Assembly (NCBI GenBank): GCA_021018815.1 | Contig: JAITYX010000135.1 | Location: forward strand, 1 to 64,000 | Reading direction: 5' to 3' | Origin: Talinum fruticosum | Taxonomy: Eukaryota; Streptophyta; Magnoliopsida; Caryophyllales; Talinaceae | Length of the DNA: 64,000 bases | In this document: positions 1 through 64,000 of the stretch, one piece after another | Layout: every line of letters starts with the position of its first letter | Position numbering within the stretch: position 1 is the stretch's first letter | The notes under the pieces: generated by a model | What the model was told of the DNA's origin: nothing | Database searches by the model: none | What the model saw: the letters and a program-made list of their open reading frames with translations, nothing else | Made by a program: the position numbers and the translations under genes

Positions 1-817
1 ATTAAACTAAAATTCTTGTTACTCAACTCCCTTGCGCTAATTCCGTTTAGATCTTAATTGAGCATATACTCGTTAAAGTAGTCGATTAGATCAAGCAATG
101 ATATTCATACGAGGTAATGCGTTACGGATTCAAATCAAGAAAATGAAAATACATATATACAAATACCTAAATATTTCGTAGTTAATATTGTTGTTATTAT
201 TATTGTCATTGTTATTGTTATTGTTAGATGCAACTAATTCGATTAATTTGCCAAGCCCAACTTATCTTTCGATCCTTATTCCTAACGTAATTTCTTTATT
301 TCTCACTTCATCGAATTCACGCCCATAGCAATTACTCAATCTACCAATGCCTTTCCATAGGAGGCTTCACGATTAACCAAATTGCTCAAAACTCATACAT
401 ATACCAACTTAAGGTCATGAGCATTACTTTCACCACAAAATTCACATTCGAAATCACAATTAGGCATGCTTAATATTTGAACTATCTTCTCAAACCTCTG
501 CAAGTACACATTAGCTAGTTCAACTTATGCATATACTCGCCCTACGTTTGCTCAATATAGTCATTCCCCAAAATCTCAAAATCCATCCAATTACTCAATT
601 ACATAACCAAACATCCCTAATTTCGTTCTCTAAATTATAATTTCCTAAAAGAAATTACATTGATACACAATTAGTCCATCAACCGCCATACCTCGGTCAT
701 CCATACCAATCCGAATTTTCCCAAATCAATCCTCAAATTCACTTTACAAATATATTTCTAGATTATATACTTCAATTTACCACTACAATTGCTTAAATAA
801 ATAAGGAATTTGATAGC

Positions 818-1384
818 TTAGGGTTTAACGTTTACCTTCAAATTCGGAGAGGAGAAGTCGAGGAGGACAAGCGGGGGTGGCGGTGGACGCCGGCTGCACC
901 GGCAACCACTTGGCGAGGCGGCGACAAACTCCGGCGGCCGCTGCGGCTGGGGTTGGCTGCCAAGCGAACCGCGGCGGAGGAATCGAACAGCGCCCGCGGG
1001 AGGAAGAGAGGGATGGCGAGAGCACGAGCGAGGGAGGGAGCGAGACCGAGGGGCGCAGGGCGTCCTCCTAGCGACGCCGACGCCGGCTTCGGCCGGCGTT
1101 GGTGGCGTTTGGTGACCGAGAGAAGACCGCGGCAGTGGATCGCGAAGGGAAACCGGGAACAGGGGAGCGAGGGCACCGCGAGAGCGAGAACCCGCACGAG
1201 GCGCGACGGAGAGAGAGGGAGGGAAACAGATGGCCGGCGCCGGCCGTCCGGCCGGCGTCGGTCGTCGCTGGTGGCCGGAGTAGCAGCACGGACGCGGAGG
1301 AAGAGGTGGAGGAGGGCGAGGAGGAAGCGAGAGGGAGCAGGGAAGCGAATTGAGAGAATTAGGAGACCGAAGCTTGCCCGGCAT
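818..1384 (-). other. GC-rich island inside gypsy-1 3' LTR with a 188-codon open frame
   Basis: A sharp block of high GC content in an otherwise AT-rich LTR, repeated at 9574-10131 in the other LTR. The minus strand (the element's sense strand) is open for 188 codons here and 185 in the other copy, starting at the homologous ATG; other frames are open as well. The predicted peptide is Pro/Ser/Arg-rich with no recognisable domain. The two copies differ by frame-changing indels, which argues against selection on a protein. More likely it is a CpG-rich leader or promoter segment, possibly captured from a host gene's 5' region. Confidence 0.5.
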
Positions 1385-1494
1385 TTCTATTCCTGATTCT
1401 ATTTTATTTATTATTATTATTATTATTATTTTTTTGTAAACATTTCCAGATTAATCCAATTCTGGATTTTTCTAAAAAAATCTGCTTAATTCAC

Positions 1495-1540
<46 letters not shown>
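1495..1540. repeat. (ATT)n microsatellite in gypsy-1 3' LTR
   Basis: Uninterrupted ATT units. The homologous tract at about 10243-10277 in the other LTR is shorter, so it has changed length since insertion. Confidence 0.95.
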
Positions 1541-1906
1541 GCTTTATTTTTATGTTTATTTTTATGTATTTATTTATTTATTTGTTATTTTTTTGTTACT
1601 CTTTAATTTTATTTTATCTTACTCGCTGATGTTTATAACTTGTAAATATAATTGCCCGCTTGAAATATAATATTAGCGACCTTGTCATTATATGCCAACT
1701 CATGTAAATTTTTGAAATTTACATATGCGAAATTTTATAATCATCATTATGAGATTTTATCAAGGCCACTTCGTCGCCCGAGCTGCATAACACGTATACA
1801 TAAAAATAATTTAAATATGAAATATCGAATTGAAGTGCACGCGCTCAATTATATTAATCTTGTAATTAATAAGATAGATAATGTGATTTAAGGTCGGGTT
1901 GTTAGA

Positions 1907-1925
1907 GTCTTCCCCCTTAAAATAA
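1907..1925 (-). other. gypsy-1 polypurine tract
   Basis: On the minus strand this reads as a purine run (TTAAGGGGGAAGACTC) immediately before the 3' LTR, where plus-strand DNA synthesis of an LTR element is primed. It fixes the element's orientation. Confidence 0.8.
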
Positions 1926-7628: not shown

Positions 7629-7655
7629 TCTCTAAACCCGGCTCGATACCACAAC
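7629..7655 (-). other. gypsy-1 primer binding site (tRNA-Met type)
   Basis: The minus strand next to the 5' LTR reads TTGTGGTATCGAGCCGGG, close to the TGGTATCAGAGCC site complementary to plant initiator tRNA-Met. CAGAG is replaced by CGAG, one of the recurrent CAG-to-CGA changes in this window. Confidence 0.8.
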
Positions 7656-10241
7656 CGTAACGCCCCGAGTTACCATTACTTAATAATTCCCTAATTCGAG
7701 AATATTAGGTAAGGTCGCAGCGGAAGTTAGCGGTCGAAGGCGTCACCGCCACCCTAATAATAGGACAAGGCTAAAATAAAATATCATAGCACCCTGTGTT
7801 TATCGGTTATGCGTAAGTCTTTGAAAGCACTAAATGTTATGTTGCACGGGGCCAAGCCCGGCAATATAAATAAACTAATCCCACAAGTAGAGTCCTGCTA
7901 AACCTTTATACATTAGACAAGCCAATACAACAGTCTACGGTAGGAAATACGCAATATTTAATTACATTCCAAAGTTAAACCCGTAATTTAACGAGGTTAA
8001 GAATCACTCGTGAGCATCTAATCCCATCATAGCACAATGATAACGACATACCCAGACCATGTCTTGCTCCCATCAGGCTTCTTAGGCAATGGACTGTTCA
8101 CGTATGCTTTTCCTAAAACAAAAACATTAAAATAATTCGAAAAATGAGTCAAAACTCAGTACGAACATTCCTGCACGATTAAATAATTTTGAAACACATT
8201 GATTGAGCGCGCGCATTTCAATTCATTTTAGTTTGAAATCGGGGGAAAGAATATAAGTAAAACTTGCTTGCCGGTTATTATCCGAAAGTGGAACCCCTTG
8301 ATAATTGATACGATCTTAGTAAGGTGCACACCTCCCGGCCGACCGAGAACCCGAGTTGAAGCCGCGCGGGTTGGGCATAAGCCCCGGTTATTGATAATTG
8401 ATGGGCATAAGCCCCGATAATTGATAATTGGGCGGGGACCACTTGATTAGGTGGCAAAACTTGATTTGCAAATGGTTCATTATTAATTATATATATGAGA
8501 AATGTTGAGATTTGATGAAATATGTGAGTTTTGAAAGGTACGAGCAATGAACGTACTCGAACCGAGAATGCTTGTTTCTCCCCTTTTCATAAAGTTTTAA
8601 TTTACCAGCTATCCAAGCAATCGAAGTGGCCTCGGTTTTGTTTCAAATAGATTTCCCTTGTTAATAATGTTTTTCTTGAGTTTTAATACTTGAATTCGTA
8701 TAATAGTTGGCGATTGGATTCACTTTCTTTATTTATTAAGTAATCGATTAAACTAAAATTCTTGTTACTCAACTCCCTTGCGCTAATTCCGTTTAGATCT
8801 TAATTGAGCGTATACTCGTTAAAGTAGTCGATTAGATCAAGCAATGATATTCATACGAGGTAATGCGTTACGGATTCAAATCAAGAAAATGAAAATACAT
8901 ATATACAAATACCTAAATATTTCGTAGTTAATATTGTTGTTATTATTATTGTCATTGTTATTGTTATTGTTAGATGCAACTAATTCGATTAATTTGCCAA
9001 GCCCAACTTATCTTTCGATCCTTATTCCTAACGTAATTTCTTTATTTCTCACTTCATCGAATTCACGCCCATAGCAATTACTCAATCTACCAATGCCTTT
9101 CCATAGGGAGGCTTCACGATTAACCAAATTGCTCAAAACTCATACATATACCAACTTAAGGTCATGAGCATTACTTTCACCACAAAATTCACATTCGAAA
9201 TCACAATTAAGCATGCTTAATATTTGAACTATCTTCTCAAACCTCTGCAAGTACACATTAGCTAGTTCAACTTATGCATATACTACGCCCTACGTTTGCT
9301 CAATATAGTCATTCCCCAAAATCTAAAAATCCATCCAATTACTCAATTACATAACCAAACATCCCTAATTTCGTTCTCTAAATTATAATTTCCTAAAAGA
9401 AATTACATTGATACACAATTAGTCCATCAACCGCCATACCTCGACTCATCCATACCAATCCGAATTTTCCCAAATCGATCCTCAAATTCACCTTACAAAT
9501 ATATTTCTAGATTATATACTTCAATTTACCACTACAATTGCTTAAATAAATAAGGAATTTGATAGCTTAGGGTTTAACGTTTACCTTCAAATTCGGAGAG
9601 GAGAAGTCGAGGAGGACAAGCGGGGGTGGCGGTGGACGGCGGCTGCACCGGCAACCACTTGGCGAGGCGGCGACAAACTCCGGCGGCCGCTGCGGCTGGG
9701 GTTGGCTGCCAAGTGAACCGCGGCGAGAGGAATCGAACAGACACCGCGGGAGGAAGAGAGGGATGGCGAGAGCACGAGCGAGGGAGGGAGCGAGACCGAG
9801 GGGCGTAGGGCGTCCTCCTAGCGACGCCGACGCCGGCTTCGGCCGGCGTTGGTGGCGTTGGTGACCGAGAGAAGACCGCGGCGATGGATCGCGAAGGGAA
9901 ACCGGGAACAGGGAGCAGGGCTCCGCGAGAGCGAGAACCCGCACGAGGCGCGACGGAGAGAGAGGGAGGGAAACAGATGGCCGGCACCGGTCGTCCGGCC
10001 GGCGTCTGGTCGTGCTGGTGGCCGGAGTAGCAGCACGAGACGCGGAGGAAGAGGCTGCAGGAGGGCAGGAGGAAGCAGAGGGAGCAGGGAAGCGAATTGA
10101 GAGAATTAGGAGACCGAAGCTTGCCCGGCATTTCTATTCCCGATTCTATTTTATTTATTATTATTATTATTATTTTTTTTTTGTAAACATTTCCAGATTA
10201 ATCCAATTCTGGATTTTTCTAAAAAAATCTGCTTAATTCAC

Positions 10242-10275
<34 letters not shown>

Positions 10276-10642
10276 TTGCTTTATTTTTATGTTTATTTTT
10301 ATGTATTTATTTATTTATTTGTTATTTTTTTGTTACTCTTTAATTTTATTTTATCTTACTCGCTGATGTTTATAACTTGTAAATATAATTGCCCGCTTGA
10401 AATATAATATTAGCGACCTTGATTATATGCCAACTCATGTAAATTTTTGAAATTTACATATGCGAAATTTTATAATCATCATTATGAGATTTTTATCAAG
10501 GCCTCTTCGTCGCTCGAGCTGCATAACACGTATACATAAAAATAATTTAAATATGAAATATCGAATTGAAGTGCACGCGCTCAATTATATTAATCTTGTA
10601 ATTAATAAGATAGATAATGTGATTTAAGGTCGGGTTGTTACA
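7656..10642 (-). repeat. gypsy-1 5' LTR, complete
   Basis: A 2987-bp LTR. On the minus strand it opens TGTAACAACCCGACC at 10642 and ends ...GTTACGG at 7656, where TG/CA termini are expected; the outer dinucleotide here reads CG. It contains an (ATT)n tract near 10243-10277, a GC-rich island at 9574-10131 matching 818-1384, and at 8300-8430 a short direct repeat (ataagccccg with attgataattg). The start abuts copia-A coding sequence at 10643. Confidence 0.9.
8300..8435. repeat. short tandem-like repeats in gypsy-1 LTR
   Basis: The blocks gataattgat and ggcataagccccg recur several times between 8298 and 8430, forming an imperfect local repeat. No coding role is visible. Confidence 0.6.
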
Positions 10643-14197: not shown

Positions 14198-15749
14198 TGA
14201 AGACTCGAGACACTCGCTCAATACTTTTCTCGAGGTTTTATAACAATGTCATACCTAAAGAGTTTTGATTCCAAGGCATTCTCCGTATCTCGAAACTTCC
14301 TTGAGTAAAATAGTATCTTTTCTGAGTGATACGGATATTACTTTTTATATTTCTTGCTTATCCGTAGCGACTCGAAAAGCTGGTTCTTTGTTCCGAGTCC
14401 AAGCATCACTCGAGTTAATCGCAGATTGAATAGACTAGTGTTTCGTCTTTTCTCACTCGGAATTTGACTTGTGGTTATAAGTCCTATTTTGTTATAGTCG
14501 GTATTTTTAGCTTGTTTCATGCTTAGTCTATATCAAGTTAATCCTCTCCGATATTCTTTATTGAACTTGATTCTTCGCTTAGACTAAGTCGGATGGAATT
14601 CCGAGTATCATGGATATTGGACTCGGAAAATTCCATTATGTTTCGACTCGGATAATCGGTCGGTTTATTTATCGTAATTATTTTATTATCTCGTGTATAA
14701 TCTTGGGCCAAAGTATTTTATACTTTTAGAACCAAAATTGATTTACTTTTGTAGGTTATTCAATCGAGGATACACTTTTCAAACTACAAAAGTTACCGGC
14801 TTCGCAACGTGCAGACATGGCTCTTCACCTTCTCTCGCTCCAGGTCCCAGTAGAGTGTGTCATGGCTGTCTGTTTCCAAATCTGGAAAAGCTGGAACGCC
14901 AAGCTTAGCGGTGGTTTCCACCTTATCTTTCAAGACACTGCCAATGGTTTTGAGACTTTCAAGAGAGTTAAACCGTTGTCCAACGTTCACATTACAACGG
15001 ATACTTTTCGAGTGACTCGTAAAGCTTTTATCAACGGTCACGGAAGACTCTCGGTCAGCGAGTTAAAGATAACGGCTACTCTGCCTGGTTATCTATAAAT
15101 AGAAGCCACTTCATAAGACTTGAAGGTTGCCGAACATATTGTTAATACACATACTTGCTCAAAGTTATTGTATTTACTTTCAATCTTCAACTTACAACTC
15201 CCACTATGTAATTCATTACTTTACGAGTTGTAAAGTCTTGTACTTAGTTACAAACTCTTTCTTACACTCTTTGTAAGGTCCCTTGACTAAGCTGTAAGGG
15301 TTAACTCAGCTTAGTTGTCCCTAGCTGTAAGGGTTATCTCAGCTAGGAAGTACTAGATCGAGATAAGGGAATTTCGAGTCTAGGAAAACTTGTATAGAGT
15401 TGTCTAAGGGAACAACTCGGGTTCGATCGGTTCACGGTATTTTGTGGACTCAAAATAGTGAATTTGACTTCGTGTCCGGATTGGCACGGTCCGTGGTTTT
15501 CTGCCCCAGGAGGGTTTCCACGTAATCTCTAAGTGTTATTATTCGAGTTCATTCTAGACTCGGATAGCTTTACTGACTCTTGCTATTTACGCTAATGACC
15601 TTCCGAGTTAAATCTTTTCGACCTTGTTGATAGACTCGGAATCTGTCTCTGTCTTGTTTTTAACAGATGAGCTAAAGTTTCCAAGAAAAACTTCTATCAC
15701 CCTATTCACCCCCTCTAGGGTGACTCGGACTCTCCCGAGTAAACCTTCA
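14198..15749 (+). repeat. copia-A 3' LTR
   Basis: A 1552-bp LTR running from TGAAGACTCGAG to GTAAACCTTCA, homologous to both LTRs of copia-B and to the solo LTR at 21981-23563. Many short CTCGG/CCGAGT motifs are spread through it. The outer end abuts CACTA-1 TNP2 sequence. Confidence 0.93.
15094..15101 (+). promoter_or_regulatory. copia-A LTR TATA box
   Basis: TATAAATA in ttatctataaatagaagcc. The same position carries TATAAAAG in both copia-B LTRs, and the reverse complement is at 22641-22648 in the solo LTR. This probably marks the start of the R region. Confidence 0.7.
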
Positions 15750-15759
15750 CTCTCCATCG

Positions 15760-19076: not shown

Positions 19077-21980
19077 TATGAATAAAAATGATCTAGATAG
19101 CCAGGTCATGGTTTAGAAAGAATTGACGATAATTAGATGAACTAGTTAAAATTTTTGAATTGGTGATCTATCAAGTAGTCAGATAAGAAAATACTGACTA
19201 GGTCTTTATCTAATGGTATTATCAAAACTTCATATTTCAATAATAAAGAGGAAACAATAAGTAGGGGAAATACCTTGGTAGTGGCATAAATTGAGTAAAG
19301 GATGCTTTGATTACAATATATTTTCATGGGAGAGGCAATAAGATAAAAGCATATTTGAGTATTACTTCTAAGAAATAAAATTATTGTTATGAAATTAAAG
19401 ATTCCATAACAAGAAAACACTAATTTAGGTCATACTTAAATAATTTTTTTCTTTTGATATTGGAACAAGTGCTATAAGTATTGGTGTATATGATGAATTA
19501 AACAACTCTTTATATGAATAATTTTGATAAGCAGAACAAGGATTTCTATGGCAGTACATTTTCGTCAATATTAGAAAAATTTGCTTGTGAAATTATAAAG
19601 TCATGATAAGCAAAAACCACATTAGTCTTGGAGTAATTATGAAGAGTCACAAAAAGAATATATGAAATGGCATAGAAAAATAGGTTCAACTTAGTTTGTA
19701 TTCAAATCAAAGTTAGAATTCGCTGGAATGAATTGTAAATAATAAAGAGTTAAGATGTGTGATAAATGTATAAATATAGCAAATTAGGTTCATAGATATA
19801 TCTTTAGTGGCATAAGCCAAACATACGTACAGAAGCATGTAATTTACAATGATAGGAAGAATTTCGGAAAAAAGAGTTGGATAGTTAATTACAAAAATAT
19901 TATTAATTAAAAAGATTTTTTGGAATGGGGTTATTTCTTTTTAAAAAACAGAACTAATAGTGTAATATAAAAAGTTCGGTATTTTGGTATGAATGAGTAA
20001 AGTTTGGGAAAGCTCTCTTTTAGTGGAAGATAGAGTATAAGAATGGTAATTCAAAAGAAGTAACTAGGTCAACCAACAGATAAAGATTTCTCAGGAGGGA
20101 AATGAGTCATTAGATATTGAAAAATATAATAGCTACAGAATAAGCATCATAAGGACCATTACTGGGAGCAAGAGAAGAAATTTTCGACGTGAATGATTAA
20201 ATGAAGAAAGATAACAAATAAGACAATGTTAGAATGGACATGGATGAGCATGATGGATTAGTATGATTTGCATGTATTTATGAGTTATTATGTGTTGGGA
20301 GTAAATGATGAACTCCATTAGCAATCGACAAAGGTCAAAGAAGTCATTGGATTCAAAGAAGGGTTAAACAATTATGTTACGATGGTTCCTATGGAAAGGA
20401 TTCAACAATGAACATGGGTTAACTAAATTCGATTATGAGCTTATGTAAGTTGATGCAAATGTTCATGTGATGGACATTATATAAGTTTGATCTATCTAAG
20501 TAAGGACGCTTAACCCTTTTTTTTTTACGAAAGGATTTTATATATATCACACTCATTCTTTAATCTTGTATTACAAAATCCAACGTTGCACTTTTACAAA
20601 AATAACCTATTATTTTTTTTTCCTCCCTAAAACATGATGTCTCGTTCAATAAACTCAACCAGGTACAACTCTCCTATGAGTTCGTATAACTCTCTAATCC
20701 AATAGTATGAAGTTATTAGCCAACATAAATCATGTTAAACTATTATCAAAGTATCTAAATTCCATAACTTAATTTCTACAATCATTAAAATTTTACTTGT
20801 ACTTGCTTGTATTTGAACGTCCAAAATACATATAGAATATAATTTCCTCCCTTTAACTTTATGGTTATAACACGTTTCCTATAACCTTGAGCATTTCTCT
20901 CATAGACTCTTCGTCTTTGACTTATGCCTTTAGAAAAGTGGATATTTATCTACTTAAATTACGGTTTTGCTTTCTCAATGATTCTAGCCAATTATCTTTG
21001 ATAAAATATATACGTAGTTACATTTTCTTTCTTCTTTAAATGACTTATTTTATTTAGCATCCTTCCACCAAGCATCAATCATTATATCTAATCGGAATAC
21101 TCTAATATATTAATTTTCAAAACATTTAGCACCCTTTTTTTTAACAAATTATTGAACAGGTCTCCCATACTTCAAAATTATATAATCTTGTTTTCCATCT
21201 CAAGTTCATTATTAATTTCCAAAAATTTGTTAACACAATCTCATTATTTATATTATACCCTAAACACCCTTTCTCTTACGACAAATCCAAATATAATTAA
21301 CTATATCAACTTTCATAAATATCTAAAGAACTATAATATGCTCTACCATAAGTATCTATACTTGAATCAAACAATCCTCTTACCTTTGCAAAATCCTTCA
21401 TTTATTTCAATAACTTCAAAGAACAAGCACCCTTATCAAGAACGTAGAACTCCGGTCAATAAAAATAAATTATGAAATTATAGTAACATCTAAGACCAAA
21501 ACGTTTCGCAATAACCGCAAAAGAGTTGCTCTATCTATATAATCAGTTGTAATGTACTTTATTATTCCATAACTTTCATTGTGCTCCAATATAATCCATG
21601 TCATTCTCATTCACATAATTACCTATGTAATGATTAACTTTTATCTCTCTACACAATATCTCTTATTTATTCACCAAGACATAAATATATATCCTATTCA
21701 TATTTTACGTAAAGGGTCATATTCAATTCGTACACACAACAAATGCTATATATTTATATACATGTATTTTGTTCTTCAATATAGTCAAATAATACAAATA
21801 GGTGTAATCATTACAAATAACGATCACAAACATTATAGGTTTCCCAAATATAATTGGTTATAAATTACGAGTGTCATAAGACCAAAGTGTAAGTCAAAGG
21901 CCGCATTTTTTAATGTGCTTAACAATAACTATTATTTGTGTCTATAAGAAATAATATTGATGTTTTCATGATTATACTCG
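18361..21980. other. Unassigned AT-rich stretch
   Basis: No recognisable domain, LTR or terminal repeat was found in 3.6 kb. A 63-codon minus frame (18450-18641) has a plausible helical, charged peptide (LSWVSLEHKAKFELEGYKKK) but no family I recognise. An (AAT)n tract lies at 19040-19075. The right part (20520-21980) may be decayed interior of gypsy-2, to which it is adjacent, but no pol motif could be read. I see nothing else supportable. Confidence 0.5.
19040..19075. repeat. (AAT)n microsatellite
   Basis: Continuous AAT units in AT-rich sequence. Confidence 0.95.
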
Positions 21981-38744: not shown

Positions 38745-39540
38745 CTGAATGTGTAGAGGCCATGCAAGAAGAGCTTAATCAATTCGAAAGAAACCAAGTC
38801 CGGACACCGACCAAACGACCTTCCAACCACCCAGTCATAGGAACCAAATGGGTTTTAAAAACAAACTGGATGAAGGTGGGGTAGTAGTCGGGAATAAGGC
38901 TAGATTTGTGGCTCGGGGATACAATCAAGAAGAAGGGATTGATTGTGGGGAAACCTTTGCACCTGTTGCTCGTATTGAGGCCATTAGAATTTTGTTGGCT
39001 TTTGCATCTAGCATGAACATCAAGCTATATCGGATGGATGTTAAGTGTGCATTTCTCAATGGTTTTATTGAAGAAGAAGTCTATGTCGAACAACCTCCCG
39101 GGTTTGAAAACTCGGAATTTCCAAATCATGTTTTCGGACTTCAAACAACTCTATATGGTCTTAAACAAGCTCCTCGCGCTTGGTATGAAAGACTCGAGCA
39201 ATTTCTTGGTTCAAAACGATTTTAAAAGAGGACAGATCGACAAGACTCTCTTCATCAAAACCAAGGGAGTAGATTTTCTCATTGTTCGATTTATGTTGAT
39301 GATATTATTTTTGGAGCAACTAACGAAAATCATGTCGAGAATTCTCTCGACTTAATGAGTCGGGAGTTCCAAATGAGTATGATGGGAGAACTCAACTTCT
39401 TTCTTGGTTTACAAATCAAACAAGACAAAGATGGAATCTATGTCCATCAATCAAAGTATACCAAGGAACTGCTGAAGAAGTACAAACTCCAAGATGCGAA
39501 GCATGCATTTACACCAATGAGCAAGCAGTATAAAGCTTGA
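38745..39540 (+). pseudogene. copia-B reverse transcriptase (frameshifted)
   Basis: After a GTKWV start the main block runs from 38848 with ARFVARGYNQEEGIDCGETF, then APVARIEAIRILLAFA, MDVKCAFLNG and LYGLKQAPRAWYERL. The YVDD catalytic box lies at about 39292-39303 but in a different frame. The MGELNFFLGLQIKQDKDG segment at 39379 follows. Frame changes occur at about 38850, at gactcgagca (about 39195) and at gttcgattta (about 39285). The last two coincide with CTG-to-CTCG and CAGA-to-CGA patterns. Confidence 0.88.
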
Positions 39541-42820: not shown

Positions 42821-42834
42821 CAAAAAGGGGAGAT
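42821..42834 (+). other. copia-B 3' polypurine tract
   Basis: caaaaaggggagat just before the 3' LTR; a second purine tract (aaaggcaaggggagaag) lies at about 42540. Confidence 0.85.
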
Positions 42835-53301: not shown

Positions 53302-54519
53302 TATGTGGAACACTTTTTGGTAAGTTTCCTCATACTTATATCACAAAAAGCCGAAACAACTATTGTAACTTGCAAAACCTTTTCGGTTTGAATTATGGGG
53401 GAGGGATATGATTTGTTATGTAGAAAGGCTCAAAAAGTGACTCGGTGCAAAGCTGTTCGGAAAAGTTTTACGTGGGGAAGACGTAAGCCGATAATTAGTA
53501 GAAGAGGCATATTAATTCACTCTAGTTGTGTGTCTTGTGTTTCACCAATGGGATATTTGATTCTCTAATGTCCAAGATGAACATTTTCTTAAATATACGA
53601 ACAACATGCATCGGTATTAACCATTTGCAATAAGTTGCAATTCTAAGTTGAGATATAGTGCATTTACCCGTATATCATTCCAAAGGTTTTCCTTAACCGA
53701 ATTTGGGAATGTGCCCCAACTTCGTAGTTGATGTTGACGTGTGTGCGCATTGCTTGCACCAACATAGCTCATAAAGCGAGCCGCGTGCTCACCTACCGAG
53801 TTATGGTGCATGTCGAATTGGACTTGGGCAAGGAGATCTCTACTATGTACCAATTTCTCTTTGTTCGTCATTGTTCGTCCCCTCGAGCTCTTTGTAACTT
53901 GGGAGTGATCCATTTTATACTCGTCGTAGTTTAATTAGAATAGCACAACTTAATTACAAAAACATAATAAGAATAAAACAGTTTTATTATAACAACACAA
54001 TTATCACAATAAAACCAAAATGTCAAGGAATCATTCTAGTTCTATACCTTGAGAGAGACAACTTAAAATATTAAGAATCCTAAAAAAAAATGGACAGAGT
54101 TTCCTCTTAAAAGTAGACATTTTCTCGGGATAACAACTCTAATCCGAAACAACAAAAACGAACAATAACTAATTGCTCAACGACCACACGTCGGAGTAAA
54201 TTTATCTACTAGAGGTCTTTAATAATTAAATTTCACAATATTCTTCCCTCGTCATCAAAACACATTTTTCGGAAGAGTATAAAAATTTTCCAAGTAATTG
54301 CAGCTAAATAGAATACCTATGACTACACGAAAATTGAAACCCAAAATTATACACGTAAAATTGCACAATAGCATACAAAGTAGCATGCTAATATTGAAAC
54401 CCTAAATATTAAACCCTATTTAGCATGCTACTCGTTGAAACCCTAAACTACGAGAGAAAATGAGCGAGGACAACAGAGTAGTGAAACTCTAAACTATAAA
54501 AGAAAATTAATGAAAGTAC
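53302..54519 (-). mobile_element. Probable CACTA-3 interior, left of the Athila-like insertion
   Basis: Contains a TNP1-like fragment (53617-53913) and is continuous, across the AGTAC target duplication, with 62419-62969 which ends in a CACTA terminus. CACTA-2 appears to have inserted at its left. The other terminus was not found, so the extent is uncertain. Confidence 0.5.
53617..53913 (-). pseudogene. TNP1-like (Transposase_24-like) fragment
   Basis: A 98-codon minus frame, MDHSQVTKSSRGRTMTNKEK, then VGEHAARFMSYVGASNAHTR and SWGTFPNSVKENLWNDIRVN. The pattern G..A..F.SY.G...R......SW...P...K..LW.DI is that of CACTA-associated plant transposase proteins. Only the N-terminal module is present. 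It may be the first coding exon of CACTA-3. Confidence 0.6.
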
Positions 54520-56157
54520 TCGACAGGCCGCAAGCGCACGGTGTTTAAATTGTAGCTAGTCAAGGTCGATCCCACAAGGACTCGATCTAGTAACGAACTA
54601 AACTAGTTCTCTACTCAATTGCTAAGCAAATCATATTTTTAAAGTTGGTTCCTTCTAAACTAGTTCTAACTATTAAAATTATGAAAATTAATCTAGACTT
54701 AAATCAATGGGTAAAAACATCTAGGGATTTGCTTTCCTAACAATGGGTTTGATTATTTAAACATAATTTGTGCAATCATTTATTCAAATAAATGAAGGAT
54801 CGATAATCATAAAATTCTACCGCTCTTTCGATGCTTAATAGAATTGCTCTAATTAACCCATCAAACAACTTTCGTATGCCTTTTAAGTTAATCAAAGTTA
54901 AAGATTTCAAATTATCAAAGTGATCCCCTAATTTACTAATCTTTTCTCAAATTTCATAAACTAGTTAGAAAAGTTGGTTGTCGGATTATTCTATTTCACA
55001 TTTCAGTACATGATAGATTATTCTCTAAACACAAGTATTCTAATCCTTCAAAACACTCATGAACATGATAAACACAACTTTCTAATGAATCAAAATCAGA
55101 ATTCCAGCACAAATCATAGAAAACTAATCAAACTTCATTGTTTCGGATTACAAATCCCTAGAAAAACTAAACTACTCACACGTGTTTATTAAAAGCTTAA
55201 ATAATATCCAATACAATGGAATCAAACCTCAAACAGCAAGAAATGAACAAGTAGATGATAGGCTTGAAGTGCTCCACTTGAATCTTTCGACCTCGGATGG
55301 AACTCTGCAATCGCTTCAATCTTCTTCTTCGATCTTCAAAGTTTTTGGTTTGATGTGAAGGAATGGAAGAAGGAAAAATGGAGGATGAACTATGGAGGAT
55401 TCTAGACTAGATTCTGTAGGAATGGCCGAAAATCAACTTAAATAATCCATTAAGAAGCAATCAAGAGCCGAAACCGTCAAAACCGAAGCGTCTCGGCATA
55501 ATTTACCTCCAACACGGGTCGTGTCCTCCGACACGGGCTACCCGTGTTGGCTGCTAGCACGTCAAAACTGGACGGGGACGATGAAAACGGGTCGTGTCCT
55601 CCGACATGGGCTGGCCGTGTTCAATGTAAATGCTCCTGACCTCCAACACGGGTCGTTTCCTCCGAAACGGGCCGCCCGTGTTGGTTCTTTGGAAGGATGC
55701 GTCAAATTGATTCAATCATAACTTCCTCGTCCGATGTCCAAATGATGTGATTCTTAATTTTCCGGAAAGCTCATTGAGTCTAGTTTCTAATTCTTTCATC
55801 ATTATGCTTGCTTCATAAGTGTGGAAAAAATATAATTCAGAGAGTAAAGAAGTGTCCGCTACCACACCCTTCTTACTTTCCAACTCATATCTTTCCGTTC
55901 CTCAGCGAATTGAGCTTATAATATGTCATTCGAAAGCTCTTTTAATAAGGACGTTAGAAACATAGATTCAAAATAGCTTTGGATTGAAATATGACTAAAA
56001 TCAGGTCCAAATCATTAGGAAGCTGCAGAAATAAACCAAAAACGCAAAACCCAAGTGAAAAGCATAAATGGGGCATAAAGTACATAAATATGAACTTAAA
56101 TCCCCAAAAATGACAAGCAACTTCCTAGGAAATCTAATGCAAAAATGGCACTTATCA
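54520..56157 (-). repeat. Athila-like 3' LTR
   Basis: 1638 bp. On the minus strand TGATAAGTGCC to GGCCTGTCGA; the terminal tga of the other copy reads tcga here. Contains three cacggg/cccgtg hairpin modules (55505-55690). Confidence 0.93.
55505..55690. repeat. Palindromic cacgggtcgtgt modules in 3' LTR
   Basis: Three successive units of the form caacacggg-tcgtgtcctccgacac-gggc-cccgtgttgg, each with inverted arms. They are repeated at 61765-61945 in the other LTR, and comparable ggccgtgc modules occur at 24775-25030. Confidence 0.8.
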
Positions 56158-57990
56158 AAGTCCCCCATGCTTAAACCTTGCTTGTCCCCAAGCAAATACA
56201 AGACTCAAACAAAAACAAAAAGAAAATAAAAGGACTCCGGATGAAAAAGAAAAATCTATTTACACACCCTCCTCGGGTAAGCATCGGTAGAATTCTTTAA
56301 CAACTAAATTTAACCAAGAATAGCCCGAAAGTGTTGAAAACCATTAAGCACAAGTAAGAGGGAAATTTTTGAAAAGATTTCTATGAATCACACAATCAAG
56401 ATCAAATCAATCACCCCTAATCTCCAATGATACAAGTTGGCACATGTATGAGCATGAAACCGAGAAAGATTGAGAGCAAAACTCACTTAGGAAGTGGAAA
56501 CACTCCTTTCATGTGTTTGAAAATATATAACAATGAAGGTTCTCTCAATACTCCTACCAAAGAAACAATCTACCATATGCTTGCTAAGAATCTCAACTCT
56601 CCACCACGAGATGCAAATGCAAATGACAATCAAGAGGTCTTTTTAGGGTTGTAACGAGGCTAGGGGTTAAGGGTAGGAGTGGATTTATTTAAGTAATGAG
56701 GAGCTAAAGCCAAACTTGGAGCTAACTCATTAGATATCTCATATATACAATACTATCCATTCATAAACAATCAAAACAAACCTGGAAAACCCATTGGAAA
56801 CCACCTTAAATCTACACAAGCTACCGCCAAAACACTTTATTCCTTCCTTTTTTTCGATTTTTTTAAATTTTTTTCTATCACTTTTTTTCTGACTTTTTTC
56901 ATTTTTTTGGAATGGCAAAACAAATATATTTATAATACTAGGCAAGTTTCCAATTTTCAACCCAAATGAGACTACACAAGTGGAGAAAAGTTCAAGAATT
57001 GAATTTCACAACTAATCCCCATCAACCAAACCACAAAATTTACCACAATCAACCCATATCGCACTCAAAACACTCCAAGCAATGACTTAAGGGTATTATA
57101 AATGTATTTGGCCAAGGCTTGTTAATGTAGGTTCAATCAAAAAGAGTGGTCAAAGGCTAGAAAAGGGCTAAAAGCAGTAATTCATACAAGTAAGGGTGGC
57201 TTTTTGGCTCATGTAGTTAACAAAATCAACAATTGAATGCCTCTATCATATTGTCAATGCAAATACAAATTGCGATTTCGAAGAGATTCAAAGCAAGTTC
57301 TAGAGATTGCAACCAAGGTAGAGTCACACATGGAAAACATGAGACTAATAAAAATGATTAGTCTTTTAAGGCTTAGTGGTCTCACGGGATAAGGCTCAAC
57401 AACCAATCCTAATTCAAGATGTTGCACATGCCAATCTCACATCACAAGATCAAGAAGGGTAATCAATCATCTCCATCAAAGTGCAATTCTAAACCAAGAT
57501 TCTCTTACAAACTCTTTTCAAAAACTTTTATTCACAAACGGGCTATACAAGATAAAACAAAGTCAAAAGAAAATATACCTAGCCTAAGAATCATCACCGG
57601 AGGATTTATTAACTAACCTAAAGTCTAATCTAAGTTTTTTTCTTTTTTTCACATTATTTAATTTTTTTCTGATTTTCTAATGAAAGCTATAAAAACTACC
57701 CCTACATGCAACCTAAATGCAAGTGCAAAACCTAGAAATTACATTATTCTTCATGCACTACATGAATGCAAAACCTTCCCCCATGCTAGGACAAAGCATT
57801 GTCCTCAATGCAATTAAGAATCAATGTGATGGAAGGAGAAAGAACAATCACTCTTCAAGTACATATAATGGTAACTTTTATGAAAAATGCAAACTACCTA
57901 AAAATTAAAAAAAAAAGGAAAGAAATCACCTTGGGTTGCCTCCCAAGCAGCGCTTCTTTAAGGTCATTAGCTAGACCCAACTCCAATCAT
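56158..57990 (-). other. Athila-like 3' non-coding tail with two purine tracts
   Basis: Non-coding, AT-rich. The LTR-proximal tract AGCATGGGGGACT lies at 56159-56172, and a second similar site (GACAATGC...AGCATGGGGGAAGG) lies at 57775-57812. An AAGCGCTGCTTGGGAGGC motif at about 57937-57955 is the end-of-protein or tail signature common in these elements. The open frames here are not considered genes. Confidence 0.65.
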
Positions 57991-57994
57991 CCGT

Positions 57995-59015
57995 CTAAGG
58001 CAAGAGGATAAACCGGAAAGAAAGGAGACTTCGAAGAAGCGTTACTCCTTTGTCACGGACTTCAAAGTTGAATACTCGTAAAACAAGGTGTCTCCAAATA
58101 CCCTTATCAAAGATTACTCTCTGTCGTGGGTGGTCACCATCGGACGGGCTACCATCACATGTGACCTTCCGGTTAAGGTCCAAATCAAGAGCTCCAATGC
58201 GTGGAGCTTCAACCAAAGCAAGCTTCAACCTATTACACTCATTGAGACAAATATCATTAAACACATAGGACATGCCTTTGCCAAACATTGGCGGAGGAAA
58301 TTTGTCAACCTCCACCACCTTAGCATTGACAAGTTCATGCCCTTCATGCAAAGGTTTATCGCATGCTACTTCATCAATTATTTCAACACTACAACATTTA
58401 GCGGAAATGGGGAAACATCATATTTCTTAAAAATTCAAATTCGGCGTGATGCTCCCCTACATCAAAGGTCAATCTGCCCTTTTTACATCAATCTTACACC
58501 CAGCAGTAGCCAAGAAAGGTCTCCCAAGAATGATTTGGGTGCGAGTATCCTCAGCCATATCAAGAACTAAAAAGTCTACAGGCACAAAGAAATCACCAAC
58601 TTTGACGGGAATGTCCTCTAAAATACCCAAAGGATATGTCACGAGAACTATCCGCTAATTGAAGAGAAATGGTGGTGGACCTTAACTTACCTATGTCCAA
58701 ATTATTATATAAAGAATAGGGTATCAAGCTCACACTTGACCCCAAATCACATAAAGCACGATCTATGGACACATTCCCAATCGGGCATGAGATGGAAAAA
58801 CTACATGGGTCTTTAAGCTTCTCGGGAAGCTTATTTTGGACTACCGCACTACACTCCTCACTCAATGCAAAAGTCTCATGCTCATTCAATGTCCTCTTTT
58901 TGGAGAGGATCTCTTTCAAAAATTTAGCATACAAAGGCATTTGAGTCAAAGCATCAATGAAGGGAATGTTCATATTGCATTTCTTAAGCATCTCCAAAAA
59001 CTTCCCAAATTGCAT
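57995..59015 (-). pseudogene. Athila-like aspartic protease region
   Basis: From 59015: MQFGKFLEMLKKCNMNIPFI, then an ILSKKRTLNEHETFAL segment. The protease is marked by RALCDLGSSVSLIPYSLYNN (catalytic Asp in DLGSS), then LQLADSS. In another frame follow VPVDFLVLDMAEDTRTQIIL and GRPFLATAGCKIDV (about 58560-58450), the usual C-terminal half. A further 118-codon frame (58351-57995) has no domain. One frame change near 58610 separates the halves. Confidence 0.82.
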
Positions 59016-59032
59016 ATCAAGCTTAGCCTTAG

Positions 59033-60632
59033 CTATTCTTGTGGGAATGGTAAAGGCGGAATGTAAATTCTTTCGGGAGTTTTTGGTCGGTCATTAGGAG
59101 TCTCAATCTCATTTTGCACAACAACATCAACTAAGAGTTCTTTGGAGGGTAAAGACACCTCCTCATTCACAACATTGTTCACATTTTGCATATCAATGGT
59201 CACATGCTCACTCCTATCACCCTTAGCCCCCGCCAATTATGTCCCACTCCTCACGGTTATGGCATTTCATTGTTCCCTAGGGTTAATCTCGGGTTGGCTA
59301 GGAAGCTTACCGGGAGAGCTAGAGGAAGAGCTTGCTTGGCTAGCAATTTGTGTTTCAAGCATCTTATTGTGAGCGGCTAAGATTTCAACTTTAGAAGCCA
59401 ATTGCTTGATAATCTCGTCTTGCTTTTGTTGAGCCAAAAGCATGCTTTCCATCATGACCTCCAAGTTAGACTTTTGGGGCACTTGGGGTTGGGTAGGTCT
59501 TTGGAATCCAGGGGCGGGTGGTCTTTGGACTTGTGGTGGACCCATGGGATTGTTGTTCCGAGTAGGAAAAATTAGGGTGCTACCTCGATCTCGGGTTATA
59601 GAAATTGGAGAATGGGTCAAAGTTTGGCCTTAGGTTCGGGTTGCCAATAAAATTGGCTTGGTCGGTTGGTCCATTACTAGCCATACCCACAGGACAAAAC
59701 AAAGTCTCGTGCTCATAAGAACTACATGAAGCACATGGAAGGGGAGGGGCAACATTCACATTTAGACGGTCCATTTTTTTAGTTATAGCATCTATCTTAG
59801 CAGAAAGGACAGAAACTACATCAACATCAAGCTTACCTCCCGTTCTCTTGGAATGGGGCTTGGACCATTGAAAGCTGTTGAGCGTCATCTGCTCAATCAA
59901 GGTGTGGAGCTCATCGACGGACTTGTTCATGATGTTTCCTCCCGCCGCCGCAAGAATGGTGGCTCTCAAGTGATCATCGACCCCATTGTAGAAAGCTTGA
60001 ATGGGGACCCATGGCTCAAATCCATGTTGTGGGCATTGGCGAAGGATATCCTTAAACCGCTCCCATGCTTCATATAATGTCTCATCCGGCTCTTGGGTGA
60101 AGGTGGAAATTTGGTTCCTCAAACTGGTCAACTTGCTTGGTGGGAAGTATTTTGCCAAGAAGGCACTTGCAAGTTGATTAAATGTGCTGATGGAGTTCGC
60201 CGGAAGAGAATCTAGCCACTCCCATGCCCTTCCTTCAAGAGAGAATGGAAACAATCGCAGCTTGATTGCATCCGGTGAAGCCCAGTTCGCCTTGAAAGTA
60301 TCACATGCTTGGCGAAAAATGCGGAGGTGCTGGTTGGGGTCTTCATTGGGGAGGCCATGGAAAAGAGTGGCCCTTACCAAGTTGATGAGCGAGTTATTCA
60401 ACTCAAAGTCATTCGCCACTACGGTCGGGGCATTGATGGTCGTCGGTGGATTAGTGACATTGGCTGTCACATATTCCCCAAAAGTTCTTCTTTCTTCATC
60501 GGCCATCTTGGGCTTTTGCTTGGAGCTTTCTTCTTGCTTCTTCCTAGCCTTCTCTAGCCTTTGGTTCTTCAGTCTAGAGCGGAAGGTTCGCTCGATTTCA
60601 GGATCAAACTCAAATAATTGAGATTTTTGCAT
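59033..60632 (-). CDS. Athila-like gag
   Basis: A 350-codon frame starts at 60632 (MQKSQLFEFDPEIERTFRSR) and runs to 59580. The Retrotrans_gag domain lies at about residues 85-240: INLVRATLFHGLPNEDPNQH, RLFPFSLEGRAWEWLDSLPA, FLAKYFPPSKLTSLRNQIST, LYEAWERFKDILRQCPQHGF, then FYNGVDDHL. A Cys-containing segment (CASCSSYEHETLFCP) follows. After a frame change near 59580 a Pro/Gln-rich linker (59570-59450) and a helical stretch (EVMMESMLLAQQKQDEIIKQ) continue, then to 59033 before the protease. The protein would form the particle. The gag domain itself is intact, unlike every other retrotransposon gene here. Confidence 0.87.
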
Positions 60633-60749
60633 GCAAGGAGAGAATACCTAGCAAGAACAAAAACAAAACTACCAACGCAATCAAAATAGAAAAAGAAAAT
60701 AAACACTTAGTCAATTTGAGAGTATTCTTCTAATGGCTACTAAAAATAA

Positions 60750-60774
60750 AGTCCCAGGAACGGCGCCAAAAACT
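60750..60774 (-). other. Athila-like primer binding site
   Basis: Minus strand TTTTTGGCGCCGTTCCTGGG next to the 5' LTR. It resembles the tRNA-Asp-type site of Athila elements but ends CCTGGG in place of GCCGGGG. Confidence 0.8.
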
Positions 60775-62418
60775 TGACAGGCCGTAAGTGCATGGTATTT
60801 AAATTGTAGCTAGTCAAGGTCGATCCCACAAGGACGCGATCTAGCAACGCACTAAACTAGCCCTCTACTCAATTGCTAAGCAAATCAGATTTTTAAAGTT
60901 GGTTCCTTCTAAACTAGTTCTAATTATTAAAATTATGAAAATTAATCTAGACTTAAATCAATAGGTAAAAACATCTAGGGATTTGCTTTCCCGACAATGG
61001 GTTTGATTATCTAAACATAATTTGTGCAATCATTCATTCAAATAAATCAAGGATCGATAATCACAAAATTCTACCACTCTTTCGATGCTTAATAGAATTG
61101 CTCTAATTAACCTATCAAACAACTTTCGTATGCCTTTTAAGTTAATCAAAGTTAAAGATTTCAAATTATCAAAGTGATCCCCTAATTTACTAATCTTTTC
61201 TCAAATTTCATAAACTAGGTAGAAAAGTTGGTTGTCGGATTATTCTATTTCACCTTTCGAGTACATGATAGATTAATCTCTAAACATAAGTATTCTAGAC
61301 CTTCAAAACACTCATAAACATGATAAATACAACTTTCTATTGAATCAAAATCAGAATTCCAGCAGAAATCATAGAAAACTAATCAAACTTCATTGTTTCG
61401 GATTACAAATCCCTAGAAAAACTAAACTACTGACACATGTTTATTGAAAGCTTAAATAATATCCAATACATGGAATCAAACCTCAAACAGCAAGAAATGA
61501 ACAAGTAGATGATAGGCTTGAAGTGCTCCACTTGAATCTTTCGACTTCGAGATGGAACTCATGGCATCGCTTCAATCTTCTTCTTCGATCTTCAAAGTTT
61601 TTGGTTTGATGTGAAGGAATGGAAGAAGGAAAAATGGAGGATGAACTATGGAGGATTCTAGACTGGATTCTGCAGGAATGGTCGAAAATCAACTTAAATA
61701 ATCCATTAAGAAGCAATCAAGAGCCGAAACCGTCAAAGCCGAAGCGTCTCGGCATAATTTACCTCCAACACGGGCCGTGTCCTCCGACACGGGCTGCCCG
61801 TGTTGGCTGCTGGCACGTCAAAACTGGACGGGGACGATGAAAGCGGGCCGTGTCGTCCGACACGAGGCTGGCCGTGTTCAATGTAAATGCTCCTGACCTC
61901 CAACACGGGCCGTTTCCTCCGAAACGGCCTGCCCTTGTTGGTTCTTCGGAAGGATGCGTCAAATTGATTCGATCATAACTTCCTCGTCCGATGTCCAAAT
62001 GATGCGATTCTTGATTTTCCAGAAAGCTCATTGAGTCTAGTTTCTAATTCTTTCATCATTATGCTTGCTTCAGAAGTGTGGGAAAAAATATAATTCAGAG
62101 AGTAAAGAAGTGTCCGTTACCACACTCTTCTTACTTTCCAACTCATATCTTTCCGTTCCTCAACGAAATTGAGCTTATAATACGTTATTCGAAAACTCTT
62201 TTAATAAGGACGTTAGAAACATAGATTCAAAATAGCTTTGGACTGAAATATGACTAAAATCGAGGTCCAAATCATTAGGAAGGCTGCAGAAACAAACCAA
62301 AAACGCAAAACCCAAGTGAAAAGCATAAATGGGGCATAAAGTACATAAATATGAACTTAAATCCCCAAAAATGACAAGCAACTTCCTATGAAATCTAATG
62401 CAAAAATGACACTTATCA
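60775..62418 (-). repeat. Athila-like 5' LTR
   Basis: 1644 bp, pairs with 54520-56157. Differences include tttcagtac/tttcgagtac, atcaggtcc/atcgaggtcc and several cggg/cgag changes. Confidence 0.93.
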
Positions 62419-62969
62419 AGTACAAAATAAGAGAGGGAGACAGGAGTCACATACCGACGGAAGCGACAACGAGTAAGAATGAGCGAGAGGAAGTAGCAAC
62501 AACGATAAGGAGAGGCATGAGCGAGAGACGAGAGTAGAGCAGCGAGCGGTGATTAGATAGCGAGTGGCGACGACGGCTAAGAGAGAACAACGATGACGAC
62601 AAGGAGACAGCAGAGAGTAGAGTGACGAGAGCAAGTGCGGAGCGAGAGTAAGAGAGTAGAGAGCATAGAGCATAGAGTGAAGGTGGAAAACTAGGCTGAT
62701 CGTGGTTTTTTTGTTTCGATACACTTTTGATTATGATTCAATGAAAGAATCATAGTAATAAACAACTATTAGTACGAGTTCTTTCATCTGAATTGTAGTT
62801 AAAAGAGGACATATCCACCTATGACGATTGTTCAATGAAAAATCGTAATAATAGGTATGTAATAAAAGACCGCTTATTTACAAAAATGTCACCACCTCAT
62901 TTTCGTTAACGGTTTTTGTTTATAACCATCATAAAATGTCCATAATAAAAGGTCATATATGTAGTAGTG
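62419..62969 (-). mobile_element. CACTA-3 5' end
   Basis: On the minus strand starts CACTACTACATATATGACC at 62969. Related terminal motifs (aaccgttaacg, ataaaatgtccat, caatcgtcat) resemble those of CACTA-1. A Ser/Leu-rich open frame (62416-62724 minus) precedes a donor-like GTATGT at about 62453 and is probably the untranslated first exon. The Athila-like element is inserted just inside. Confidence 0.65.
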
Positions 62970-64000
62970 ATTATGCACCTAGGAGTACATGCTCCCAGGA
63001 CATATATTACCAAATGGTTGAATGAAAGAAAAAATAGTTAGGTTTTATGCATCTAACATAATGGCATGTCACTCGAAAGTATATGCTCTCATATAAATAT
63101 AGAAATTTACAAGCAAACCAACACCTAATAATGTGCCTTAGTCATATGAGCATCTCAGGACAAACAACATTAGAAAATAACATGCAAAAAATAAATGATC
63201 ACATATATCGCAACTGGGGCCGCAAAAACACGCATACCTCAGATATTGGAAAACCCCTTTTTGTATAGTAAACTTATAATGACTGTTGTTATCGACAATC
63301 ATCATAAGTTGTATCAATCTACACCGTACACGTGTATCAAATTGATCCCAATTGTGCATATTTTTAATTTTAATTAAATAAAAAAATAAATTATAAAAAT
63401 TATTAATTATTTCTAAAATTTAATTAAAATGATTAATTTTTAGTGTTTGGCAATATTCAACTACTCACTCATAGAAAAACAAAAGAACTTCAATCCCAAA
63501 AAAAAAAAGAAAACAAAAGAACCCCAAACCCTATGCTATGTCGTTTATGTGCAGTCACCACCATTGAAACTGGTCAGGCGATGTTTTCTGGCAATTTTCT
63601 GGCGACGATTTTCCACCCGCTCCATCTCTCTTATCTTTCTCTTCTCTCAATATGTCTCTCCCACAAGCCTCAGTTCCCGCGTCTATGAAGCAGCCACAAT
63701 CCATCACCCCTCTGTTCACTCTTTATGTTTTCTGTTTCTAATTTCTACTTACAATCTCCTATCACACTGGAATCCATGGAGGGTCTTCGCTAAATTAACA
63801 TGTTGCACTTTTTTATGCTCTATTCAAGTTGAACTGTACCCAACACATTGAGCCACATCGCCAAATCACTCTTCGCGGAAAAGCTTTACTGTTCCAGAAT
63901 CTATGGAGGTAGAGGAGTTGAGTTGAAATTGTGAAAGGGCTGGAAACTTCAGTGACAATGTTGAAGGTCCTATGTTTCTTTTTATTTATTATTTTTTAAT
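62970..64000. other. Dispersed repeat with LINE fragment; no gene resolved
   Basis: 63120-63260 is a second copy of the LINE 3' fragment at 29670-29800 (minus frame with CDHLFFACYF). 63270-63500 matches 30120-30340. Beyond about 63520 the sequence contains a short 134-codon frame (63447-63851) with no domain. The copies were probably derived from one source unit and then diverged. Confidence 0.6.

What the first reader, a model, noticed from the sequence alone, without database searches (positions are those of the whole stretch)
1..64000. Differences and frameshifts cluster at CAG and CTG: probable methylation-linked sequencing errors in transposons
In paired LTRs the same position reads CTG in one copy and CTCG, TCG, CCG or CTT in the other, or CAG against CGAG, CGA or CAAG. 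Examples: 33741 actgtctagg versus 42909 actcgtctagg; 34750 aactcgtaag versus 43923 agctgtaag; 34768 ctcgactag versus 43938 ctcagctag; 54998 tttcagtac versus 61255 tttcgagtac; 56003 atcaggtcc versus 62260 atcgaggtcc. Several coding breaks sit at exactly such a word and the frame would continue without it: 35553 (actcgcc), 39195 (actcgagca), 39285 (gttcgattta), 44926 (tcaagcac), 46903 (atacgagtg). The gypsy-1 primer site reads TATCGAGCC where the tRNA-type site has TATCAGAGCC. Nearly all variants create CG. CAG and CTG are CHG methylation sites, heavily methylated on plant transposons. A base caller that learned methylated C only in CG would give this pattern. If so, many pseudogene calls here are technical, and the errors map CHG methylation.
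Basis: partly seen in the sequence, partly recalled or inferred. Interest (0 to 1): 0.9.

Follow-up and report, generated by a model that had tools for sequence, protein, structure and literature searches.

The report
Methylation-linked misreads at CAG and CTG
In this stretch of plant transposon DNA the words CAG and CTG are less than half as common as expected and paired copies disagree there more often than at any other three-letter word; the likely cause is sequencing software misreading predicted methyl marks at these words, so some apparent gene breaks would be errors and not real damage.

Summary
The 15 words cited with coordinates lie within 5 bp of them. CAG/CTG is the rarest of 32 trinucleotide classes (648 seen, 0.46 of expectation) and CGAG/CTCG the most over-represented tetranucleotide (541, 2.0x). 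In three LTR pairs, CAG-class words are indel-touched in 15 of 113 cases against 202 of 10112 for all words. C[G]AG makes up 8 of 19 clean non-homopolymer 1-bp indels (null mean 0.11, maximum 2 in 20000 trials).

Sequencing error is the best reading. The CG-type discordance does not rise with divergence of the copies; a 3.3-kb island, picked after the profile, has near-normal CAG and no CGAG excess; nanopore callers fail at bacterial Dcm sites CCWGG (PMC6591954), the same methyl-C-before-A/T-G setting.

Corrections: "nearly all create CG" is overstated (22 of 41 differing CAG words). Part of the CAG loss is genuine deamination: C>T is 3.4 times commoner at CWG than at CHH in these pairs, and two of three primer-like sites read TATTAGAGCC. 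Platform, basecaller and methylation of this plant were not seen.

The parts
1..1904 (.). LTR A, copy 1 (cut by the window start)
   Evidence: 97.5% identical to 8747-10640; 5 of 41 CAG words in the pair read CGAG/CGA/CG in the other copy
8747..10640 (.). LTR A, copy 2
33667..35183 (+). LTR B, 5' copy (copia)
   Evidence: 95.0% identical to 42833-44352; 8 of 33 CAG words in the pair discordant as CGAG/CGA/CG; CGAG 4.1x expected
42833..44352 (+). LTR B, 3' copy (copia)
   Evidence: CGAG 4.3x expected
54518..56158 (-). LTR C, 3' copy (gypsy on the minus strand)
   Evidence: 95.3% identical to 60772-62419; 2 of 39 CAG words in the pair discordant as CGAG/CGA/CG, 6 of 39 as TAG/CAA
60772..62419 (-). 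LTR C, 5' copy
14239..15750 (+). older LTR copy D1, pairs with 21980-23510 on the minus strand
   Evidence: 83.9% identical; 5 of 39 CAG words discordant as CGAG/CGA/CG
21980..23510 (-). older LTR copy D2
37856..39480 (+). integrase to reverse-transcriptase part of copia B with four placed frame changes, three at CAAG, CTCGAG and CGA words, one at a T/A run
   Evidence: tblastn of fetched homologues; RVT_2 Pfam match; rve Pfam match
7640..7652 (-). tRNA-Met-like primer site reading TATCGAGCC
   Evidence: pattern scan; the canonical TATCAGAGCC is recalled and comes from no call
35185..35198 (+). primer-like site of copia B reading TATTAGAGCC (C>T, full length)
28001..31300 (.). island with near-normal CAG/CTG and no CGAG/CTCG excess
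   Evidence: CAG 53 against 60.8 expected (0.87, rest of window 0.44); CGAG 8 against 10.1 (0.79, rest 2.05); interval chosen after seeing the profile
56159..60771 (-). interior of gypsy C: CAG 0.23, CG 0.47, CAA 1.71 of expectation, that is mostly genuine deamination

Best explanation
The CAG/CTG disagreements in this window are likely consensus sequencing errors, and the mechanism I commit to is that nanopore basecalling, predicted to have been trained with methyl-C almost only before G, misread methylated C in CAG/CTG as C followed by G, giving CGAG, CGA, CG and part of the CGG readings. Shown: the excess, its word specificity, the lack of rise with copy divergence, one region without the signature, and a genuine C>T excess at CWG in the three younger LTR pairs. 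Inferred: that the platform was nanopore, that the caller had not learned plant CHG methylation, and that each affected site is methylated. Genuine deamination of methyl-CWG (to TAG and CAA) acts on the same words and explains part of the CAG shortage, most clearly inside gypsy C.
For: C[G]AG/CT[C]G is 8 of 19 clean non-homopolymer 1-bp indels in pairs A, B, C (null mean 0.11, maximum 2 of 20000 trials) and 11 of 57 in six alignments (null mean 0.33, maximum 4). CGAG loses its second base in 9 of 173 comparable sites, against 0/102 CGAA, 0/70 CGAT, 1/54 CGAC, 0/100 AGAG, 0/99 TGAG, 0/48 CGTG. CAG/CGA-type swaps are 4 of 6 swaps among 12 clean double substitutions in A, B, C. CGAG/CGA/CG discordance per CAG word does not rise with divergence: 5/41, 8/33, 2/39, 5/39, 0/34, 8/63 at 1.2, 4.0, 4.2, 11.0, 14.9, 17.4%. 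CAG 0.46 and CGAG 2.0 of expectation window-wide, but 0.87 and 0.79 at 28001-31300. CWG C>T 9/152 against CHH 40/2286, p 0.003. Precedent: default ONT models put about 70% of consensus errors into Dcm CCAGG/CCTGG (PMC6591954, passages). CCG methylation is 20-50% below CAG/CTG in four plants, at least in heterochromatin (PMC5221884, passages), which fits a CWG-specific effect.
Against: No read, platform or methylation datum was available. The C>T excess at CWG comes from CAG (7/77) more than CTG (2/75) in A, B, C, and is not significant in the older set D, I1, I2 (14/99 against 149/1401, p 0.31). Discordance is low or absent in C (2/39) and I1 (0/34). The window starting at 10001 has near-normal CAG (0.93) together with high CGAG (2.5), which a simple CAG-to-CGAG conversion does not predict. 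TCGC (6/63) and TACG (4/51) also lose a base often; TCGC can be the same event seen as GCGAG, TACG is not explained. Much of the CAG loss in gypsy C is ordinary deamination. Homopolymer shortening, expected of older nanopore data, is seen for A-runs but not T-runs. No yardstick error spectrum for 5mC in CWG could be computed.
Confidence: 0.8

Rival explanations
1. All of it is genuine biology: deamination of methyl-C at CWG and CG plus ordinary indels in ageing transposons.
For: TAG and CAA are 9 of 41 counterparts of differing CAG words and two of three primer-like sites read TATTAGAGCC. Gypsy C interior has CAG 0.23 with CG 0.47 and CAA 1.71. CAG/CGG differences (7 of 41) can be CpG transitions. 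Conserved Gln columns that are kept use CAA 17 times and CAG never, which deamination also predicts.
Against: Deamination makes no indels and no CG words. C[G]AG indels and CAG/CGA swaps are far beyond chance and do not rise with divergence. CG is at 0.90 and CCG/CGG at 1.25 of expectation over the window, not depleted as deamination alone would make them.
Confidence: 0.1
2. The errors are technical but unrelated to methylation: the caller or polisher handles CAG/CTG badly everywhere, or the polishing was uneven.
For: Nothing here measures methylation. The signature varies between regions in ways that polishing depth could also produce, for example 10001-12000 with CAG 0.93 and CGAG 2.5.
Against: An island with near-normal CAG and no CGAG excess exists. 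A caller that failed on every CAG would fail in most genomes (inference). The best documented analogue is modification-specific (PMC6591954, passages).
Confidence: 0.07
3. A real mutation or repair process at methylated CWG inserts G after the methyl-C and so creates CGAG.
For: The change is highly word-specific, and such a process would hit these same words.
Against: It would have to saturate at once: 5 of 41 CAG words at 1.2% divergence, yet 0 of 34 and 8 of 63 at 15-17%. I know of no such process (recall, no search made for it).
Confidence: 0.03

Closest known systems
Nanopore consensus errors at Dcm sites CCAGG/CCTGG (Wick et al. 2019, PMC6591954; passages seen)
   Same: 5mC directly before AG or TG (which C is methylated is recalled); systematic, remains in the consensus, about 0.4% of bases; attributed there to training without this mark
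   Different: Bacterial motif CCWGG, checked against a reference. Here the word is plant CWG, there is no reference, and the link to methylation is inferred. The passages seen do not give the substituted words.
Lower default basecalling accuracy in plants, improved by species-specific models (Ferguson et al. 2022, PMC9749173; passages seen)
   Same: Plant native DNA; lineage differences in methylation named as the likely cause
   Different: A term search of its main text finds no CHG, CAG or CTG; overall accuracy, not a word-level error spectrum
CMT3/SUVH4-dependent CHG methylation of plant heterochromatin (PMC5221884 and PMC8860613; passages seen)
   Same: CAG and CTG methylated more than CCG in heterochromatin
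   Different: Measured in other species; here only a C>T excess at CWG suggests it

Membership tests
Modification-linked nanopore consensus error | Errors concentrate in one modifiable word | tested here: met
   CAG/CTG highest of 32 classes for indel-touched (15/113) and substitution-only (26/113) words; C[G]AG 8 of 19 indels
Modification-linked nanopore consensus error | Differences do not accumulate with age as mutations do | tested here: met
   CGAG/CGA/CG discordance shows no rise from 1.2 to 17.4% divergence in six alignments, two of which have few or none
Modification-linked nanopore consensus error | Affected sites are methylated and unmethylated copies are read correctly | not testable with these tools
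   No methylation data. Indirect: C>T excess at CWG in A, B, C and one island without the signature
Modification-linked nanopore consensus error | Sequence comes from nanopore reads called with a model that lacks the mark | not testable with these tools
   The assembly is unnamed; the genome search gave no answer in ten tries
Modification-linked nanopore consensus error | Shortened homopolymers, usual in older nanopore consensus (recalled) | tested here: inconclusive
   Runs of 6 or more: A 34 against 84 extrapolated, T 71 against 75
Genuine methyl-C deamination at CWG | C>T excess at CWG over CHH | tested here: met
   9/152 against 40/2286 in A, B, C (p 0.003); 23/251 against 189/3687 in all six (p 0.013); not significant in D, I1, I2 alone
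Genuine methyl-C deamination at CWG | Accounts for the C[G]AG indels and CAG/CGA swaps | tested here: not met
   Deamination gives single transitions; 8 of 19 indels and 4 of 6 swaps in A, B, C are of the other kind

The most novel reading that the evidence does not exclude
A finished plant assembly carries its own methylome: the balance of CAG against CGAG/CGA/CG at each CWG position records CHG methylation of the sequenced tissue, so the methylated domains and unmethylated islands (such as 28.0-31.3 kb) of any similarly called plant genome can be read from the FASTA alone, and many transposon 'pseudogene' frame breaks in such assemblies are methylation marks, not mutations.
Probability: 0.35. 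Interest if true: 0.7.

Novelty: new variant of a known kind. Interest (0 to 1): 0.5.

Why it matters
If right, roughly 0.2-0.4% of bases in this window (from the CGAG excess of 137 to 271 in 64000) are wrong in a fixed, CG-creating way. That would inflate LTR divergence and insertion ages, break retrotransposon frames, raise apparent CG content and fake primer-site variants, chiefly in heterochromatin. It also suggests a simple read-free quality test for plant assemblies (CAG/CTG and CGAG/CTCG observed over expected) and perhaps a crude methylation map.

Tried and rejected
A direct yardstick for how a caller misreads 5mC before AG or TG: I looked for error-rich E. coli K-12 RefSeq records (5mC at CCWGG). 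The rpoC query matched 5370 records (5317 at 99% identity or more, 53 at 95-99%; 60 listed). A larger e14 prophage query matched 3005 records. A narrower e14 query matched 282 records, all at 99% or more (60 listed, one of them at full coverage below 100.0%: NZ_CP047127). I fetched two stretches of that record; its annotation showed few broken genes, I made no alignment, and I stopped without a result.

Own-genome search: the same request was sent ten times and never answered.

Telomere-like array 47447-48051 as a second technical marker: variants read by eye, no clear call. Homopolymer shortening: A-runs short, T-runs not, so not used. tRNA genes as a conserved yardstick: none found. Frame-break counting as statistics: the script reported five transitions, four on the plus strand that I placed and one on the minus strand spread over 60 bp that I did not; frame changes across gaps over 60 bp were not counted. 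CGA/TCG words are too common for this to be a test, so it is illustration only. Pfam scans of short pieces gave annotation but few usable junctions. Of four hits in the primer-site scan one (32887, minus) was dropped as unlike a primer site. Cross-comparison of B and D LTRs was run but not used: four overlapping, non-independent alignments. The control words first read were recounted, because one search prints only the 14 commonest counterparts.

Literature: ten searches showed no paper that describes CAG/CTG read as CGAG/CTCG in plant nanopore assemblies. Several of these matched far more papers than were listed (for example 19,017 with 12 listed); searches matched none. By term search I saw passages of ten papers: PMC9749173, PMC8860613, PMC5221884, PMC7501810, PMC8514461, PMC8011154, PMC6591954, PMC8496262, PMC6984161, PMC11022628; none was read in full. 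This is a partial library and no proof that it is not in print.
Full report
What was checked. The window is plant DNA rich in LTR retrotransposons: most named hits for the copia reverse-transcriptase piece and the gypsy gag piece are plant proteins, and Rfam finds a plant snoRNA family. Self-comparison gives three LTR pairs (A 97.5%, B 95.0%, C 95.3%), an older inverted pair D (83.9%) and two internal copia stretches, I1 and I2, that align at 81% and 74%. Element B is copia-type (RVT_2 at 38779-39222; rve, gag_pre-integrs and Retrotran_gag_2 pieces). Element C is gypsy-type on the minus strand (Retrotrans_gag). Element A has gypsy-like fragments on the minus strand (RVT_1 and Integrase_H2C2 pieces below Pfam's cut-off) and a primer-like site at 7640 on the minus strand, so its LTR probably runs on beyond the aligned part, which the window start cuts (inferred).

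The 15 words cited with coordinates are present within 5 bp, and the primer-site word is at 7640. By trinucleotide, CAG/CTG has the highest rate of 32 classes both for indel-touched words, 15/113 against 202/10112 overall, and for substitution-only words, 26/113 against 826/10112 (words overlap and both copies count, so the p values there are indicative). Over the whole window CAG/CTG is the rarest trinucleotide against composition (0.46) and CGAG/CTCG the most over-represented tetranucleotide (2.0); CCG/CGG is at 1.25 and CG at 0.90. The claim that nearly all variants create CG is too strong: 22 of 41 do.

The change is not a usual mutation. Among clean one-base indels that do not extend a homopolymer, C[G]AG with its complement CT[C]G makes up 8 of 19 in pairs A, B, C and 11 of 57 in all six alignments; random relocation of the same events gives 0.11 and 0.33 on average and never more than 2 and 4 in 20000 trials. 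A further seven events in all six alignments set CGAG against CGG, as if two readings of one underlying word were being compared. Adjacent swaps of the kind CAG/CGA or CTG/TCG are 4 of 6 swaps among 12 clean double substitutions in A, B, C, and 1 of 3 swaps among 38 in D, I1, I2. CGAG loses its second base in 9 of 173 comparable sites; control words do so in 0/102 (CGAA), 0/70 (CGAT), 1/54 (CGAC), 0/100 (AGAG), 0/99 (TGAG) and 0/48 (CGTG). TCGC (6/63) and TACG (4/51) are also high; the first can be the same event with a flanking base, the second I cannot explain.

No molecular clock. From the least to the most divergent alignment (1.2, 4.0, 4.2, 11.0, 14.9, 17.4% substitutions), CAG against CGAG, CGA or CG is 5/41, 8/33, 2/39, 5/39, 0/34, 8/63, without a rise. 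CAG against TAG or CAA is 1/41, 2/33, 6/39, 5/39, 8/34, 4/63: a rise over the first five and a fall in the last. In pair A the first rate, 5 of 41, is well above C>T at CG, 5 of 357. That is how reading error behaves, but it rests on six alignments, two of which have few such words or none.

Link to methylation. Three indirect lines. First, the affected words are CWG, the CHG words with the highest methylation in plant heterochromatin, CCG being 20-50% lower in four species (PMC5221884, passages; the same preference at Arabidopsis subtelomeres, PMC8860613, passages). Second, the younger pairs carry a genuine C>T excess: CG 28/713 and CWG 9/152 against CHH 40/2286 in A, B, C. Most of the CWG part is CAG (7/77) and little CTG (2/75), and in the older set the excess is not significant (14/99 against 149/1401). 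Third, the signature is regional: at 28001-31300 CAG is 53 against 60.8 expected and CGAG 8 against 10.1, while the rest of the window is at 0.44 and 2.05 (interval chosen after the profile). I did not show that this island is unmethylated. The window from 10001, with CAG 0.93 and CGAG 2.5 together, does not fit the simple model.

Precedent and mechanism. Wick et al. 2019 (PMC6591954, passages) report that with default ONT models about 70% of consensus errors lay in Dcm motifs CCAGG/CCTGG, about 0.4% of bases, and infer training data without that mark; a second study also found Dcm errors to be the main assembly error of two ONT callers (PMC6984161, passages). The methylated base is the inner C (recalled), that is 5mC before AG or TG, as in plant CWG. 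A caller that has met 5mC mainly as CpG would be expected to emit G after it (inference), which turns CAG into CGAG, or into CGA, CG or CGG when a base is dropped. The CGAG excess here, 137 (second-order) to 271 (zero-order) words, is 0.2-0.4% of bases. Ferguson et al. 2022 (PMC9749173, passages) expect losses of this kind in plants but name no word.

What is genuine. Two of three primer-like sites read TATTAGAGCC, full length with T for C; only the one at 7640 has the shortened TATCGAGCC (the canonical site is recalled). The interior of gypsy C has CAG 0.23, CG 0.47 and CAA 1.71, an ordinary deamination pattern. Conserved Gln columns that are kept use CAA 17 times and CAG never, and conserved Leu that is kept uses CTG once in 46; both causes predict this. 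So the CAG shortage is mixed and I cannot give exact shares.

Coding breaks. With fetched homologues, frame changes in copia B between 37856 and 39480 were placed at about 37935, 38854, 39196 and 39285. I moved the third from the script's 39219-39221 to 39196 because the second-frame alignments begin at 39197. Three sit at CAAG, CTCGAG and CGA words and one at a T/A run. A fifth, on the minus strand, is spread over 60 bp and was not placed. Of 20 columns with at least 70% Gln, three differ: CGG at 39031, a frame-changed CG word at 39286, and CTT at 60365; of 12 differing Leu columns, one reads TCG and one CCG.

Verdict. Observation confirmed with one overstatement corrected. Interpretation partly supported: error very likely, methylation link likely, basecaller mechanism inferred. 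The kind is known from bacteria; the plant CWG form with its CG-creating spectrum was not described in what the searches listed in Tried and rejected showed me.

Noticed in passing
60019-60125 (+): Rfam plant snoRNA family snoR71 (RF00097) scores 69.5 bits (gathering 40) antisense inside the gypsy C gag reading frame 59583-60647 (-); either the family has retrotransposon members or the element captured it.
   Followed up: no
47447-48051: Degenerate TTTAGGG-type (plant telomere-like) array of about 87 units, interstitial.
   Followed up: partly
45955-46359 (+): Myb/SANT-like DNA-binding domain (PF12776) reading frame, followed by two further open frames up to 47235.
   Followed up: no
35314-44352 and 10643-15750: CGAG/CTCG is 3 to 4 times expected in copia LTRs B and D but 0.8-0.9 in gypsy LTR pair C, so the excess depends on the element family as well as on CAG loss; not explained.
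   Followed up: partly
10001-12000: CAG/CTG near normal (0.93) together with CGAG/CTCG 2.5 times expected; at odds with a simple conversion of CAG to CGAG.
   Followed up: no
whole window: A-runs of 6 or more are fewer than extrapolated from shorter runs (34 against 84) while T-runs are not (71 against 75).
   Followed up: partly
28001-31300: The island with near-normal CAG contains a minus-strand frame at 29655-29876 that looks to me like the zinc-finger end of a LINE-type reverse transcriptase (recalled motif, no family search run).
   Followed up: no
52286-52536: 81-bp tandem repeat, 3.1 copies, 88% matches.
   Followed up: no
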